Positions 32,568 to 58,144 of a DNA stretch of 64,000 nucleotides are shown here, in pieces; position 1 is the stretch's first letter, and each line of letters starts with the position of its first letter. The stretch is from Hyphomicrobiales bacterium. GTDB taxonomy: Bacteria; Pseudomonadota; Alphaproteobacteria; Rhizobiales; Rhizobiaceae. The notes below the pieces were generated by a model, which made no database searches, was not told where the DNA came from, and worked only from the letters and a program-made list of their open reading frames with translations. The stretch spans positions 434,001 through 498,000 of the forward strand of contig UEGR01000007.1 in the NCBI GenBank assembly GCA_900465685.1, in the 5' to 3' direction. The translations under genes and the position numbers were made by a program.

Positions 32568-33064
32568 TGCGGTCTCTTCAGATCGCGCCGCAGAACGAGC
32601 GCCGCTGAGCGTCCATTGGTGGTTTCGTAATAGGCCGGGCGATCGCCGACCTTCTGGAAGCCGAGACGACGGTATAGCGCCTGCGCAGCGACATTGGCTT
32701 CATCGACTTCGAGAAACAGTGTTTCAGCCCGTTCCTGATAGAGATAGCGCAACACCGCATCCATCAGCGCCCGGCCGACACCCTGTCGCTGCACGTCGCG
32801 TGAAACCGCGATGGTGAGGATTTCCGCCTCACCGGCCACCAGCCGCGCCAGCACGAAACCGCAGGCGTCATTGGGCTTGCCTTCCGCACGGGCGACAAAG
32901 CCGAAAACCGTATCCTGCGCGATCAGCGAGCGAAAATCGTCGGAACTCCAGCCATGATGAAAGGCGACGGCATGAATCCGCTGGATCGCATGGCTGTCCT
33001 GTGCGCTTAAAGCTTCCACTGAAACCTGTCGGCGTCCGAAGCGACCGAATGGCAAGCCCATCAT
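32564..33064 (-). CDS. rimI: Ribosomal protein S18-alanine N-acetyltransferase RimI
   Basis: The 166-residue GNAT protein has the acetyl-CoA loop VSRDVQRQGVGRALMDAVL and the EVDEANVAAQALYRRLGF helix typical of RimI. It lies directly downstream of tsaB (three bases) and overlaps plsC; tsaB-rimI adjacency is widely conserved and supports the assignment. GGAG is nine bases before the ATG. Confidence 0.9.
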   Translation of the reverse strand: MMGLPFGRFGRRQVSVEALSAQDSHAIQRIHAVAFHHGWSSDDFRSLIAQDTVFGFVARAEGKPNDACGFVLARLVAGEAEILTIAVSRDVQRQGVGRALMDAVLRYLYQERAETLFLEVDEANVAAQALYRRLGFQKVGDRPAYYETTNGRSAALVLRRDLKRPQ

Positions 33065-47268: not shown

Positions 47269-47330
47269 TCCGGCGTAAAGACATCTTCGGATAATAAAGT
47301 GAAAGCGGCCCGGATCGGACCGCTATTGCT

Positions 47331-48791
47331 TTATTTGCGATCCAGCCGGTCGGTGAACCACCTGGTCAGGTTGATCCAGACGTCATCCTTTTCCGCCGCA
47401 TCTTCGATGCCGTGTTCGAGATTGGGATTGTCGTTGACTTCGATCACCACGACACCGTCATCGGTTTCCTTCAGATCGACACCGTATAAGCCATTGCCGA
47501 TGCATCGCGCGGCGCGCAGCCCGGTTTCCAGAACCGCTTGCGGGGCTTCTGCCAGCGTGTAGGTGCGAAAGCCGCCCTCAAGCGGTTTGCCGCCGGTATC
47601 GTGCTTCACAATCTGCCAGTGGTTTTTCGCCATCATATACTGACAGACGAAAAGCGGCTTACCGTCGAGAACGCCGACGCGCCAGTCGAACCGGGTCGGC
47701 ATATATTTCTGCGCCAGCAAAAGATCGCTATCCTGAAGCCACAGCATCGCCAGCGCTTTCAGCTCGCCCAGATCACTCACCTTCTTCACGCCGCGTGAGA
47801 AAGAGGAATCCGGTATCTTGATGACCAGCGGAAAGCCCAGCAGATCGGCAGCCCGCTCCAGATCCTCTTCACCCGCAATCATCACGGTCTGAGGCACCGC
47901 CACATCATTGGCCTGCATCAGCTCGTGCAGATAGACCTTGTTGGTGCAGCGTATCATCGAAATCGGATCATCGATGACCGGCATGTTTTCCTGCTGCGCC
48001 CGGCGCGCAAAGCGATAGGTGTGGTTGGAAATCGATGTGGTTTCGCGGATGAACAGCGCATCGTAATTGGCAAGACGCGAGAGGTCCTTCCTACCGATAG
48101 GTTCGACCTCAACACCAAGTCGCGCCGCAATCTTCGCCCAGTGCTTCAGGGACGCCATGGATGATGGCGGCATCGCCTCTTTCGGATCGCAGAGCGTCGC
48201 CACGGAATAACGCGCCGGAACTTTCGGCTTGGCCGCCCGCCATTCGCGCTGGGTGTAGCGGTCGAGCGCATCCTCAAAACGCTCCTTTTGATGTTTCGAG
48301 AATTTCGAAATATTGGAGAAGCCGATTTTCTGGATACGCGCCCACTCCCCCGCTTTGATCGTCACTTCCAGCGACGGCGCCCGGAACCAATCGAACAAAA
48401 GCCTGCCGAAACGCTCGAATTCCGGGTTCTCGGCCAGACCGAAATGGACGTGAATGGTTTCAGGCGCTTTTTCCGGATGCTTGCCGAGCGCCTTGTTGAG
48501 CATGTCTTCCAGTTCGGGAATGGCATTCTCATAGAGCCGACGCTCGGAGAGATCGATCATCGTCTCGACGGACGGAATGATGCGGTGGCCACGCGCTTCC
48601 GCCAGAAGCGAGGCATAATAGCCGCGGCTCTGATAGGCATAGGTGCGCGAGAGATTGATGATGCGCGGGCGCTGCTGGCCGTTAAACAGCGCCGGATGTG
48701 CGAGATAGTCACGATTGGTCATGACCTTGTGCGGTGTGGCGCCATTATCGATATCCGAGAGGCGCCCAACGAGAATGACGCAGATCGTCAT
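47331..48791 (-). CDS. RimK-like ATP-grasp ligase with RLAN N-terminal domain
   Basis: The 486-residue protein has an N-terminal domain of the RLAN type (residues 1-165: ILVGRLSDIDNG, NLSRTYAYQSRGYYASLLAEARGH) and a C-terminal ATP-grasp ligase. Probable ATP and metal ligands are Lys285, Lys325 (VIKIPDSSFSRGV), Asp439 (YGVDLKETDDG), Glu451 and Asn453/Asn455 (EVNDNPNLEHG). RimK-type ligases add glutamate-like residues to a carboxylate; substrate unknown here. Its ATG overlaps the stop of the GNAT-C39 gene by one base, so the two are coupled. Genome surveys have predicted such pairs to act in peptide modification. Confidence 0.88.
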   Translation of the reverse strand: MTICVILVGRLSDIDNGATPHKVMTNRDYLAHPALFNGQQRPRIINLSRTYAYQSRGYYASLLAEARGHRIIPSVETMIDLSERRLYENAIPELEDMLNKALGKHPEKAPETIHVHFGLAENPEFERFGRLLFDWFRAPSLEVTIKAGEWARIQKIGFSNISKFSKHQKERFEDALDRYTQREWRAAKPKVPARYSVATLCDPKEAMPPSSMASLKHWAKIAARLGVEVEPIGRKDLSRLANYDALFIRETTSISNHTYRFARRAQQENMPVIDDPISMIRCTNKVYLHELMQANDVAVPQTVMIAGEEDLERAADLLGFPLVIKIPDSSFSRGVKKVSDLGELKALAMLWLQDSDLLLAQKYMPTRFDWRVGVLDGKPLFVCQYMMAKNHWQIVKHDTGGKPLEGGFRTYTLAEAPQAVLETGLRAARCIGNGLYGVDLKETDDGVVVIEVNDNPNLEHGIEDAAEKDDVWINLTRWFTDRLDRK

Positions 48792-49897
48792 CAGTCTGTC
48801 CCTTTTTCGAGAATCACTGCTGCCCTGAGCCCATCGCTGCCGAAACGGGCGATGCGGTCGAAGATGTGGAATGGAACCGGCACATTGGCCGCATCGGCGA
48901 TGCTTTCGCCCTGTTCCTCTTCCACCCATGGGTCATGAATAAAGATGTGACGGCCATCCTCGCCATGGGCGAGCACCCAATGCGGTACTTTGTTGCCGAA
49001 CATGAGATAGCCGCTGATCAGAACGATCACCGACGCACCGCGCCGGAGCGCCGTGACGATGTCAAACAAGGTGAAGCCGCGATAATCCACCGGGATGCCA
49101 TAGGCTTCCGTGCGCTGGCGGAAATCGGTCTGTGCAAGCTGCATCACCCGGCGCTTTTTCTCCGAACGCACCGATTGCAGAAACAGCATGTCCTCAATGG
49201 AAACGATGATCGACGCCTTCAATCCATGCTCGTAACCCGCGACGGCAAGCCCAAAAGGTTCGCAGCCGCCCGGTCCAGACATCATGTAAATCGTGGTCGC
49301 GTCGCGCCACAGGCGAACTTCCAGCACCGGATCGAGTTGCACGCCGGGCTTGTGATAGGCGAGCGCCATCATCAGACAGGCCGCCCCGCAGGTGAAATCG
49401 GTCGTCTGCCGGTAATAGGGAAATGTCGTGATCGGAGGGATGCCGCCGCGCACCGTCTTTTCAAAACGCAGCGCGTCGGAATGATCGGCATAATAATCGA
49501 GATAGCGCCCGATTGGGCGATAACCGTTGCGCTTATAAAGCGCGATGGCCCGCGCATTATCCTCGCGCACTTCGAGCCGCAACAGCGGGCGGTCGTGCTC
49601 ATAGGCTGCCGTTTCAGCAGCCTGCAACAGAAGCCCGCCTATGCCTTTTGCACTCGCATCCGGATTGACGGCGATCGAATAGAGCCGCGCCATCGCCGTA
49701 CCGTGCCGGAAAAGGATCATCGCATAGCCGATGATCTTCCCATCGACTTCCGCAATGATCGTTTCAGCGGTGGGACGCGCGATCAAGGCGCGGAAGGAGC
49801 GTCGGGAAATGCGGTCTGCTTCAAAGCAGCGCTCTTCGATGCGCAATAACGCATCAATGTCGTCTGCCGTGGCCTTGCGCGTGGTTGCGCTTGTCAT
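48791..49897 (-). CDS. GNAT acetyltransferase fused to a C39-like cysteine peptidase
   Basis: The 368-residue fusion has a GNAT domain at 1-148 (acetyl-CoA loop NPDASAKGIGGLLLQAA, ARAIALYKRNGY) and a C39-like papain-fold domain at about 155-365. The peptidase has Cys170 in TDFTCGAACLMM, His306 in PHWVLAHG and Asp322 in FIHDPW, all in the right order. ATG 49897 was preferred to 49945. It is the first gene of a two-gene operon with the RimK-like ligase. Target and product are unknown. Confidence 0.88.
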   Translation of the reverse strand: MTSATTRKATADDIDALLRIEERCFEADRISRRSFRALIARPTAETIIAEVDGKIIGYAMILFRHGTAMARLYSIAVNPDASAKGIGGLLLQAAETAAYEHDRPLLRLEVREDNARAIALYKRNGYRPIGRYLDYYADHSDALRFEKTVRGGIPPITTFPYYRQTTDFTCGAACLMMALAYHKPGVQLDPVLEVRLWRDATTIYMMSGPGGCEPFGLAVAGYEHGLKASIIVSIEDMLFLQSVRSEKKRRVMQLAQTDFRQRTEAYGIPVDYRGFTLFDIVTALRRGASVIVLISGYLMFGNKVPHWVLAHGEDGRHIFIHDPWVEEEQGESIADAANVPVPFHIFDRIARFGSDGLRAAVILEKGTD

Positions 49898-50212
49898 CCC
49901 GTGGCCTTTGCAAGTGGACCTCAAAGGTCCGGTCGAATGTGCCAACCATTGGCATATTCGCTGGCAAAAACAAGCTCCCCGAGCATGGCAAAATTATGAG
50001 TGGCAACCGAGCGTTTTCGCAGCCCCAAAAACACAATAAATTCAATCTATGATTGTATATTCATGAATTACCCGTGTTAACCATTAATTAAGATGTTGGG
50101 CGATGAAGCGGCAAATCGAATTGACTCCGAAGTGTTTCAGATTTTAACGTTTCGTTAATAAACGAGTATCCGGCAAGGACCAGATCAAAGGTCCCCACCA
50201 AAGGCGTTGAGT
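49898..50212. promoter_or_regulatory. Divergent control region between the GNAT-C39 operon and the BTLCP gene
   Basis: This 315-base region separates divergent starts. It holds a perfect inverted repeat GGACCT-caa-AGGTCC at 49916-49930, immediately upstream of the GNAT-C39 start, and an AT-rich segment near 50030-50100. Promoter elements cannot be assigned firmly. Confidence 0.5.
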
Positions 50213-50836
50213 ATGTTTTGCGTAGTTCGCTCGACCAAGAAAATTATGGCAGCTGCTGCTTTCGCGGCTTCGGTGCTGATGACAGGCTTTGGCGCTGAGG
50301 CAGCCTCTGGCGACTTCATGCAGACCGGAAAGGTCACGTCCCAGCCGATCGGCCATTACGAATTCTGCAAGCGCGAAGCACAGGAATGCAATATCGCCAG
50401 CCGCGATACCAGCCCGTTGCAGCTTGGCCATGCCAACTGGCAGCGGATTGTCGAAGTCAATCTTTCGGTCAACGAACGCATCAAGCCGATGACCGATATG
50501 GAAATCTACGGCGTCGAGGAATATTGGGCTTATCCAACCACCGTCGGCGATTGCGAAGACTATGTGCTGCTCAAGCAGCGTGAGCTGCAAAAGGCTGGCG
50601 TTCCGATCACCGATCTTCTGATCACTGTCGTGCGCAAGCCGGATGGTGAAGGCCATGCCGTCCTGACCGTCCGCACTGATCGTGGTGACTTCGTCCTCGA
50701 CAATCTGACCGACGAAGTTCTGCGCTGGAACGAAACCGATTATACCTATCTGAAGCGTCAGGCCACGAACAATACCGGCCGCTGGGTCAGCATCGAAGCC
50801 CCGGACAACCTGCTGGTCGGCTCGGTTCGTCACTAA
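50213..50836 (+). CDS. Transglutaminase-like cysteine peptidase (BTLCP family)
   Basis: The 207-residue protein has a signal peptide (to about residue 31) and the bacterial transglutaminase-like catalytic triad: Cys114 in GDCEDYVLLK, His148 in EGHAVLTV, Asp163 in VLDNL. This is the PF06035/LapG-related fold. LapG cleaves a surface adhesin under c-di-GMP control, but stand-alone alphaproteobacterial members have no proven target. ATG 50213 was taken over a TTG at 50207. Confidence 0.9.
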   Translation: MFCVVRSTKKIMAAAAFAASVLMTGFGAEAASGDFMQTGKVTSQPIGHYEFCKREAQECNIASRDTSPLQLGHANWQRIVEVNLSVNERIKPMTDMEIYGVEEYWAYPTTVGDCEDYVLLKQRELQKAGVPITDLLITVVRKPDGEGHAVLTVRTDRGDFVLDNLTDEVLRWNETDYTYLKRQATNNTGRWVSIEAPDNLLVGSVRH

Positions 50837-57205: not shown

Positions 57206-58144
57206 TTATCGCTTTGCTTCCACGGCATCCCAGAACAACGCAGCGATATTGGTGCCGTCGAAACGCTCAATCTCGCGGATACCCGTTGGCGAGGTGACGT
57301 TGATTTCGGTCATATAATTGCCGATCACATCGATGCCGACGAGAATGAAGCCGCGCTCCCGCAATGACGGACCGATACGTTCGCAGATTTCGCGTTCGCG
57401 CGGCGTCAGCTTGCTCTGTTCGGCCTTGCCGCCAGCATGCATATTGGAGCGGGCGTCGGTTTCAGATGGCACGCGATTGATCGCACCCACCGGCTCGCCG
57501 TCGATCAGGATGATGCGCTTGTCACCTGCGCGCACATCTTTCAGATAACGCTGGGCGATGAACGGCTCGCGGAAGAGCTGGCCGAACATTTCGAGCAGCG
57601 ACGAGAGATTGCGGTCGCCATCGGCCAGATGGAACACACCCGCGCCGCCATTGCCGTAAAGCGGCTTCAGGATGATGTCGCCGAACTCCCTGCGGAATTC
57701 CATGACTTCCTGCGGGTCCTTGGTGATGAGTGTTTCCGGCATCAGATCGGGAAACTCGGTAACGAAGATCTTTTCGGGGCTGTTGCGCACCCAGGCCGGA
57801 TCGTTGACGACCAGCGTCTTCGGATGAATGCGCTCCAGAAGATGCGTGGTGGTGATGTAGTTCATGTCGAAGGGTGGGTCCTGGCGCAGCAGCACCACGT
57901 CCATTTCCGACATGTCGCGGCGGATGGGCTCGCCCAGCGTGAAGTGGTCGCCCACAACGTCGCGTATGTCGAGTTTTTCAAGACGGGCTGAAACAACGCC
58001 ATCGCGCATCGACAGGCGGTCAGGCGTGTAGTGATACAGCTCGTGGCCGCGCTTTTGCGCCTCCAGCGAAAGCGCAAATGTTGTGTCGCCCTTGGTATTG
58101 ATCGTGCTGATATGGTCCATCTGGACCGCGACTTTGAGAGCCAT
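57206..58144 (-). CDS. gshB: Glutathione synthetase
   Basis: The 312-residue ATP-grasp enzyme joins gamma-glutamylcysteine and glycine. The start [15 protein letters not shown], the flexible loop region [14 protein letters not shown] and the C-terminal [17 protein letters not shown] match the family. ATG 58144 follows GAGGAAATC; the frame extends 25 codons further. Length matches E. coli GshB. Confidence 0.96.

What the first reader, a model, noticed from the sequence alone, without database searches (positions are those of the whole stretch)
47331..49897. GNAT/C39-peptidase fusion coupled to a RimK-like ATP-grasp ligase: uncharacterised peptide modification operon
The sequence shows two genes overlapping by one base: an acetyltransferase fused to a papain-like peptidase with an intact Cys170/His306/Asp322 set, and an ATP-grasp ligase with intact ATP and metal ligands behind an RLAN domain. 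Family knowledge: RimK-type ligases add amino acids to carboxylates, GNATs acylate amines and C39 domains cut leader peptides. Together these could make, cap and release a modified peptide. No precursor peptide gene or exporter is visible nearby, which fits modification of a small molecule or a ribosomal or envelope protein rather than a classic bacteriocin.
Basis: partly seen in the sequence, partly recalled or inferred. Interest (0 to 1): 0.75.

Follow-up and report, generated by a model that had tools for sequence, protein, structure and literature searches.

The report
Acetyltransferase–ligase pair, likely acetyl-peptide synthesis
Two adjacent bacterial genes encode an acetyltransferase (here fused to a papain-like hydrolase) and an ATP-driven peptide-bond maker; they travel together across many bacteria and most likely build and recycle a small acetylated peptide that has not been identified.

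The parts
48791..49897 (-). GNAT-DUF3335 protein P0002, 368 aa
   Evidence: AlphaFold2 mean pLDDT 90.9, pTM 0.87
49454..49897 (-). GNAT domain (residues 1-148), RimI/Ard1/NatA-like; E109 and Y121 line up with the Glu and Tyr of RimI (their catalytic role recalled)
48809..49423 (-). DUF3335 papain-like domain; Q164, C170, H306, D322
   Evidence: PF11814 268 bits; residues 27 of 27, D or E at 322; profile search of PDB: best chain the C39 peptidase domain of PCAT, 21 bits, E 0.0016, weak
47331..48791 (-). RLAN-RimK ligase P0001, 486 aa
48216..48791 (-). RLAN unit (residues 1-192 modelled; Pfam RLAN 27-175)
47334..48215 (-). RimK-type ATP-grasp ligase half; metal ligands D439, E451, N453; HWQI..H motif invariant
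   Evidence: Matches RimK/LysX/ArgX/Ddl chains in PDB; invariant columns
50052..50080 (-). Promoter-like site upstream of GNAT-DUF3335 (weak evidence)
   Evidence: TTAACA-17-TACAAT
47304..47324 (-). Terminator-like hairpin just past the ligase stop (weak evidence)
   Evidence: 9 pairs, 7 GC

Best explanation
The two genes make and recycle a small N-acetylated peptide in the cytoplasm. Inferred steps: the RimK-type half of the ligase activates a carboxylate with ATP and joins it to the amine of an amino acid or short peptide; the RimI-like GNAT caps the free alpha-amine with acetyl-CoA, which shields the product from aminopeptidases; the fused papain-like DUF3335 domain, where present, hydrolyses or trims the product. 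RLAN is proposed to be a degenerate second ATP-grasp unit that holds the acceptor or carries the dimer contact. The product is probably a stress or compatible-solute type metabolite, as in the Ngg route to N-acetylglutaminylglutamine amide (NAGGN), where one GNAT-ATP-grasp fusion does the same two reactions. Shown here: gene anatomy, conserved catalytic sets, near-obligate GNAT-ligase pairing, optional hydrolase, hydrolase-rich contexts. Inferred: reaction order, substrate, physiological role, role of RLAN.
For: The adjacency survives several gene orders: same strand with GNAT first, divergent, and ligase first. A natural GNAT-RLAN-RimK fusion exists (L084, 653 aa). DUF3335 is optional: 14 changes at fewest on the ligase tree, 12 forced by well-supported branches. 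Hydrolase contexts: DUF2817 (its weak PDB matches include a carboxypeptidase and a putative metallopeptidase) within 6 kb in 15 of the 26 module-bearing genomes with a strong DUF2817 match, directly downstream of the ligase in L089; in L095 a complete oligopeptide ABC importer, an AstE/AspA deacylase and two DUF3335 proteins whose N-terminal part is a degenerate GNAT; in L088 the NAGGN trio (TIGR03104 939 bits, TIGR03103 944, TIGR03106 614) followed by GNAT-DUF3335 and DUF2817; in L153 and L154 a GNAT-nitrilase fusion just upstream of GNAT-ligase. Precedent: Ngg both N-acetylates glutamine and forms the peptide bond (PMC8070244, passages). Osmotic or stress-type neighbours, each in one lineage: a mechanosensitive channel divergent from the GNAT gene in 7 loci (L109 scanned), an ECF/PhyR-like sigma factor in Mesorhizobium-type loci, an AA-kinase/PUA (ProB-type) gene, a GT20 gene.
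Against: No substrate is known. The GNAT is closest to enzymes that acetylate protein N-termini, and RimK itself acts on a ribosomal protein. The NAGGN link is one genome: 8 of 299 hold ngg with RLAN or DUF3335, and one such neighbourhood would arise by chance in roughly 2 in 100 samples like this (my estimate); ngg and RLAN do not co-occur beyond chance (8 of 28, p 0.20). DUF2817 adjacency is confined to two families. Most immediate neighbours do not recur across lineages and are unrelated in kind, e.g. DNA ligase, CorA, GGDEF/EAL, LysR, RecO, BtuR genes. Some ligases lack a GNAT nearby (L063; P. aeruginosa plasmid L197). The window's GNAT lacks the usual R/Q of the acetyl-CoA loop (SAKGIG; motif recalled).
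Confidence: 0.45

Rival explanations
1. Protein modification: the ligase adds amino acids to the C-terminus or side chains of a protein and the GNAT acetylates a protein N-terminus, with DUF3335 as the eraser, like RimK/RimB on ribosomal S6.
For: GNAT is RimI/NatA-like with a conserved tyrosine pair Y135-Y136, 26 of 27 (a peptide-binding role in such enzymes is recalled); ligase half is RimK/LysX-like; the genome has no protein over the RimK-family cut-off; RimB cleaves the glutamates that RimK adds (PMC12239564, passages).
Against: The genome has its own RimI at window 32600-32992; no shared target gene was seen among clustered neighbours; the contexts with oligopeptide importer, deacylase and NAGGN genes point to small molecules.
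Confidence: 0.27
2. Ribosomally made peptide (RiPP or graspetide): the ligase links side chains, DUF3335 cuts a leader, GNAT caps the N-terminus.
For: ATP-grasp ligases make graspetides (PMC8939145, abstract start and passages); C39 peptidases remove double-glycine leaders (PMC10318531, passage).
Against: DUF3335 absent in 29 of 80 loci; no ABC exporter among the neighbours scanned, although an MFS transporter recurs on the other strand in 10 loci of one group; short ORFs recur only inside single groups: DUF3303 after the ligase in 12 Mesorhizobium-type loci, and four unscanned sets in 3-6 loci each.
Confidence: 0.06
3. Detoxification of, or scavenging from, external amines or peptides: GNAT acetylates and the ligase conjugates an incoming compound.
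For: Patchy inside one genus (18 of 35 with a long DNA match; a diverged copy in the rest is not excluded); some relatives lie near peptide or glutamate importers.
Against: No uptake or efflux gene is a constant companion of the core pair; pairing through many lineages suits a dedicated pathway.
Confidence: 0.1
4. DUF3335 is not a hydrolase but an acyl or amino-acid transferase that uses C170 as a thioester relay between GNAT and ligase.
For: A second invariant cysteine (C212) after a glycine motif, 27 of 27; fusion to an acyltransferase.
Against: Full papain-like set with the Gln before the Cys; DUF3335 also occurs without ligase or working GNAT (L095, L100). One row of the wider set (L100) lacks the second cysteine.
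Confidence: 0.1

Closest known systems
Ngg / NAGGN osmoprotectant trio (TIGR03103, TIGR03104, TIGR03106)
   Same: GNAT plus ATP-grasp, with an associated peptidase; one GNAT-DUF3335 lies beside the trio
   Different: Ngg's ATP-grasp half is cyanophycin-synthetase-like, ours RimK/LysX-like with RLAN; no AsnO-type amidotransferase among the scanned neighbours of our pair; the window's genome has a separate Ngg
RimK / LysX / ArgX ligases
   Same: ATP-grasp half with metal and ATP ligands kept
   Different: Far under the RimK-family cut-off (76 against 143 bits); extra RLAN unit; own invariant HWQI..H motif
RimI / Ard1 / NatA N-terminal acetyltransferases
   Different: Under the RimI cut-off; fused to DUF3335; paired with a ligase
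C39 double-glycine peptidases (PCAT, 6mpz)
   Same: Cys and His motifs align
   Different: No ABC exporter seen nearby; DUF3335 family proper
Amidoligase operons predicted by Iyer et al. 2009 (recalled; not held)
   Same: The class of operon and, as I recall, this very pairing

Membership tests
RLAN-RimK ligases (PF14401) | RLAN domain over Pfam cut-off before an ATP-grasp domain | tested here: met
   148.4 bits against 25, RimK 35 against 21
DUF3335 (PF11814) | Profile over cut-off with papain-like Cys/His | tested here: met
   268.4 bits against 25; C170 and H306 27 of 27
Ngg, N-acetylglutaminylglutamine synthetase (TIGR03103) | Equivalog cut-off 569 bits | tested here: not met
   GNAT-DUF3335 protein 29.4 bits; ligase not listed at E 0.001
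NAGGN system | Amidotransferase TIGR03104 beside the synthetase | tested here: not met
   None of the six other neighbours scanned in the window is listed for it (for the aminotransferase neighbour only the best 25 of 72 families were shown); a separate Ngg lies on another contig
RimK family (TIGR00768) | Subfamily cut-off 143.4 bits | tested here: not met
   76.1 bits
RimK family (TIGR00768) | Glutamate addition to a protein or peptide | not testable with these tools
   Needs purified enzyme
RimI (TIGR01575) | Equivalog cut-off 86.4 bits | tested here: not met
   81.3 bits, 84 on the genome scan; a separate RimI scores 94.8
C39 leader peptidases (PF03412) | Pfam C39 profile | tested here: inconclusive
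   22.1 bits, just over the cut-off of 22, but only 33 of 133 positions aligned
C39 leader peptidases (PF03412) | Fused to or beside an ABC exporter | tested here: not met
   None among the eight window proteins or the PBP-superfamily neighbour
ATP-grasp fold (for RLAN) | Structural similarity spanning the domain | tested here: met
ATP-grasp fold (for RLAN) | Detectable sequence homology to an ATP-grasp ligase | tested here: inconclusive
   hhalign to its own RimK half: probability about 1%; profile search of PDB gave only two chance-level chains
ATP-grasp fold (for RLAN) | Conserved acidic metal ligands | tested here: not met
   No acidic residue among the invariant and nearly invariant columns; hence 'degenerate'
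Graspetide/RiPP | Precursor gene beside the ligase | tested here: inconclusive
   Five sets of short ORFs recur in 3-12 loci, each inside one group; only DUF3303 was scanned. ORFs under 40 codons were not called

The most novel reading that the evidence does not exclude
The pair defines a second, widespread and unrecognised route to N-acetylated short peptides as cellular solutes, parallel to NAGGN, run by a tandem ATP-grasp enzyme whose first unit (RLAN) has lost its ATP site and become a substrate- or carrier-binding module, with interchangeable hydrolases (DUF3335, DUF2817, AstE-like, nitrilase) for turnover and salvage.
Probability: 0.3. Interest if true: 0.75.

Novelty: new variant of a known kind. 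Interest (0 to 1): 0.5.

Why it matters
RLAN-RimK ligases are in about one in five of the sampled genomes of the phylum (56 of 299). Eight searches of the open library (four of the lists were capped) showed me no paper on a product or phenotype of the pair. If it makes an acetylated peptide, a common bacterial metabolite has been missed, and its synthesis, hydrolase and importer genes can now be tested as one pathway.

Tried and rejected
RiPP/bacteriocin reading: looked for recurrent precursor or exporter genes in 41 and then 117 loci by all-against-all comparison; apart from DUF2817 and DUF155 the recurrent sets are mostly local synteny or common families (GGDEF/EAL, LysR, MFS, TPR), of which I scanned representatives only. 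Phage or defence origin: no close relative of P0002 among IMG/VR contigs, no PADLOC match, PHROGs only generic acetyltransferase and S6-ligase matches plus one unknown. Statistical link of ngg with RLAN across genomes: none (8 of 28, p 0.20). Sequence homology of RLAN with its own RimK half: none detectable, so the fold claim rests on a predicted model. DUF3335 fold: not tested alone, because GNAT filled the structure lists of the whole-protein model. A wider test of GNAT-DUF3335 beside ngg: the family of that genome has only three genomes held; in its class 10 of 48 have ngg, and of these one search lists DUF3335 in two, G006 (beside ngg) and G010 (on another contig). The Fisher p for RLAN with DUF3335 (4e-43) ignores kinship.

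Rows dropped or biased: the tree used 76 of 115 ligase rows after removing near-copies with the same label; two of 117 rows were left out as under 430 residues (by length L090 and L176). The label is presence of DUF3335 beside the ligase, not in the genome (G006 and G193 have it elsewhere). The 80 named loci are the 80 best of 581, hence biased to near relatives, mostly Alphaproteobacteria. Two of these, titled Acidobacteria-type MAGs (L164, L180), share Hyphomonas-type neighbours and may be contaminants. One locus is in both sets (L085 and L146). My gene caller missed the ligase in several loci; counts therefore use tblastn.

Full report
What is there. The window's minus strand carries two genes in one probable transcription unit: GNAT-DUF3335 (48791-49897, 368 aa) and RLAN-RimK (47331-48791, 486 aa), sharing base 48791. 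Pfam puts the four domains over their cut-offs. The closest named relative is Ochrobactrum teleogrylli, 97% over the ligase, so the window belongs to the Brucella/Ochrobactrum group (lineage). Of 35 genomes of the same genus, 18 (the window's own included) hold the whole 2.57 kb module as one match at 77-100% identity, one gives only a 31-base match, and 16 give none at DNA level, which does not exclude a diverged copy.

Catalytic sets. In 36 ligases the ATP lysines (K285, K325), R371 and the metal ligands D439, E451, N453 are invariant. In 27 GNAT-DUF3335 proteins Q164, C170 and H306 are invariant and position 322 is acidic (22 D, 5 E). GNAT residues E109 (27 of 27) and Y121 (25 of 27) line up with the E and Y of the genome's own RimI; that these are RimI's catalytic pair, and the roles named for the ligase residues, are recalled. 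The window's GNAT lacks the usual R/Q of the acetyl-CoA loop while keeping GxG (motif recalled).

Distribution. In 299 genomes of the phylum, RLAN is in 56 and DUF3335 in 47; 46 have both, adjacent in 44. The exceptions are informative. Ten genomes have RLAN and no DUF3335; in all nine of these that I fetched a stand-alone GNAT of 150-159 aa lies beside the ligase. Of 80 named loci, all 80 have a GNAT beside the ligase, 51 with and 29 without DUF3335. Among 36 further ligase loci, 24 have GNAT-DUF3335, 11 GNAT alone and one neither nearby (L063, whose genome has GNAT-DUF3335 on another contig, L064); one of the 36 repeats a named locus. So GNAT plus ligase is the core, and DUF3335 comes and goes: 14 changes at fewest on the ligase tree, 12 forced by well-supported branches (quick tree of 76 rows, which cannot tell gain from loss). 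A P. aeruginosa plasmid copy has no GNAT or DUF3335 match within 6 kb.

Context. Apart from DUF2817 and DUF155, each in two families, and some very common families, no third gene recurs across lineages. Several hydrolases do appear. DUF2817 lies within 6 kb of the module in 15 of 26 module-bearing genomes with a strong match, directly after the ligase in L089 and after GNAT-DUF3335 in L088; its PDB matches are weak, the best a carboxypeptidase. In L095 a LysR gene, an oligopeptide-binding protein, two permeases, two oligopeptide-type ATPases, an AstE/AspA deacylase and a DUF3335 protein follow each other on one strand, with a second DUF3335 gene divergent; the N-terminal part of the two DUF3335 proteins, compared as a pair, is a degenerate GNAT (hhalign probability 92%). 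In L153 and L154 (Maricaulis) a GNAT-nitrilase fusion precedes GNAT and ligase. In L088 GNAT-DUF3335 and DUF2817 follow the NAGGN trio. In L100 a lone DUF3335 gene sits between a 2-oxoacid dehydrogenase E2 and a pyridine-nucleotide-disulphide oxidoreductase gene. Further single-lineage neighbours: a mechanosensitive channel divergent from the GNAT gene in 7 loci, an ECF/PhyR-like sigma factor two genes upstream in 20 loci, one of them scanned, a ProB-type gene touching the GNAT in Hyphomonas-type loci, a GT20 gene in L155. These lean towards small-peptide and osmotic or stress metabolism, but many other neighbours (DNA ligase, CorA, RecO, fatty-acid desaturase, MFS) fit no theme.

Mechanism. 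The best-supported reading is synthesis and turnover of a small N-acetylated peptide. The precedent is Ngg, which both acetylates a glutamine and joins it to a second one, AsnO then adding an amide (PMC8070244, passages). The chemistry proposed here is the same pair of reactions split over two proteins with a RimK-type rather than a cyanophycin-synthetase-like ATP-grasp. It works like Ngg; it is not a member of that family (569-bit cut-off not met). The main rival is protein modification in the manner of RimI and RimK/RimB (PMC12239564, passages).

Prior knowledge. PMC10318531 (passages) states that DUF3335 proteins are often fused to GNAT domains that might act as peptide ligases or acetylate, citing Iyer et al. 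2009; PMC4431377 (passages) discusses GNAT-linked ATP-grasp operons of another family. Iyer 2009 was not held; from memory it already noted RLAN-RimK beside GNAT-papain fusions. Eight library searches listed no experimental work on the pair; the library holds open-licence papers only, and four of the lists were capped.

Noticed in passing
L084:9553-11514: Natural fusion GNAT-RLAN-RimK in one 653-aa protein, with a separate GNAT-DUF3335 gene beside it.
   Followed up: partly
L095:4133-14397: Two DUF3335 proteins with degenerate GNAT around an oligopeptide-importer/AstE-AspA operon in a same-family genome.
   Followed up: yes
L100:9620-10321: A 233-aa stand-alone DUF3335 gene between a 2-oxoacid dehydrogenase E2 gene and a pyridine-nucleotide-disulphide oxidoreductase gene.
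   Followed up: partly
L088:1396-11561: NAGGN trio followed by GNAT-DUF3335 and DUF2817.
   Followed up: yes
L153:4059-5504 and L154:1653-3170: GNAT-carbon-nitrogen hydrolase fusion just upstream of GNAT and RLAN-RimK.
   Followed up: partly
L074, L075, L078, L098: A DUF155 (RMND1/Sif2-type) gene recurs close to the module in two unnamed families.
   Followed up: no
L109:4442-5317 and six more loci: A mechanosensitive-channel gene divergent from the GNAT gene.
   Followed up: no
window 32600-32992: The genome's own RimI (94.8 bits) lies in the same window.
   Followed up: partly
window 57224-57976: Another RimK-like ATP-grasp stretch (82 bits, under cut-off), perhaps glutathione synthetase.
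   Followed up: no
window 50207-50836: Divergent neighbour is a BTLCP (C93), weakly LapG-like, cysteine protease.
   Followed up: no
L197: P. aeruginosa plasmid with RLAN-RimK, pagP, a glutamate/aspartate importer and ggt, without GNAT nearby.
   Followed up: partly
L176:6001-7730: Ligase reading frame split in two in a Rhodospirillum MAG.
   Followed up: no
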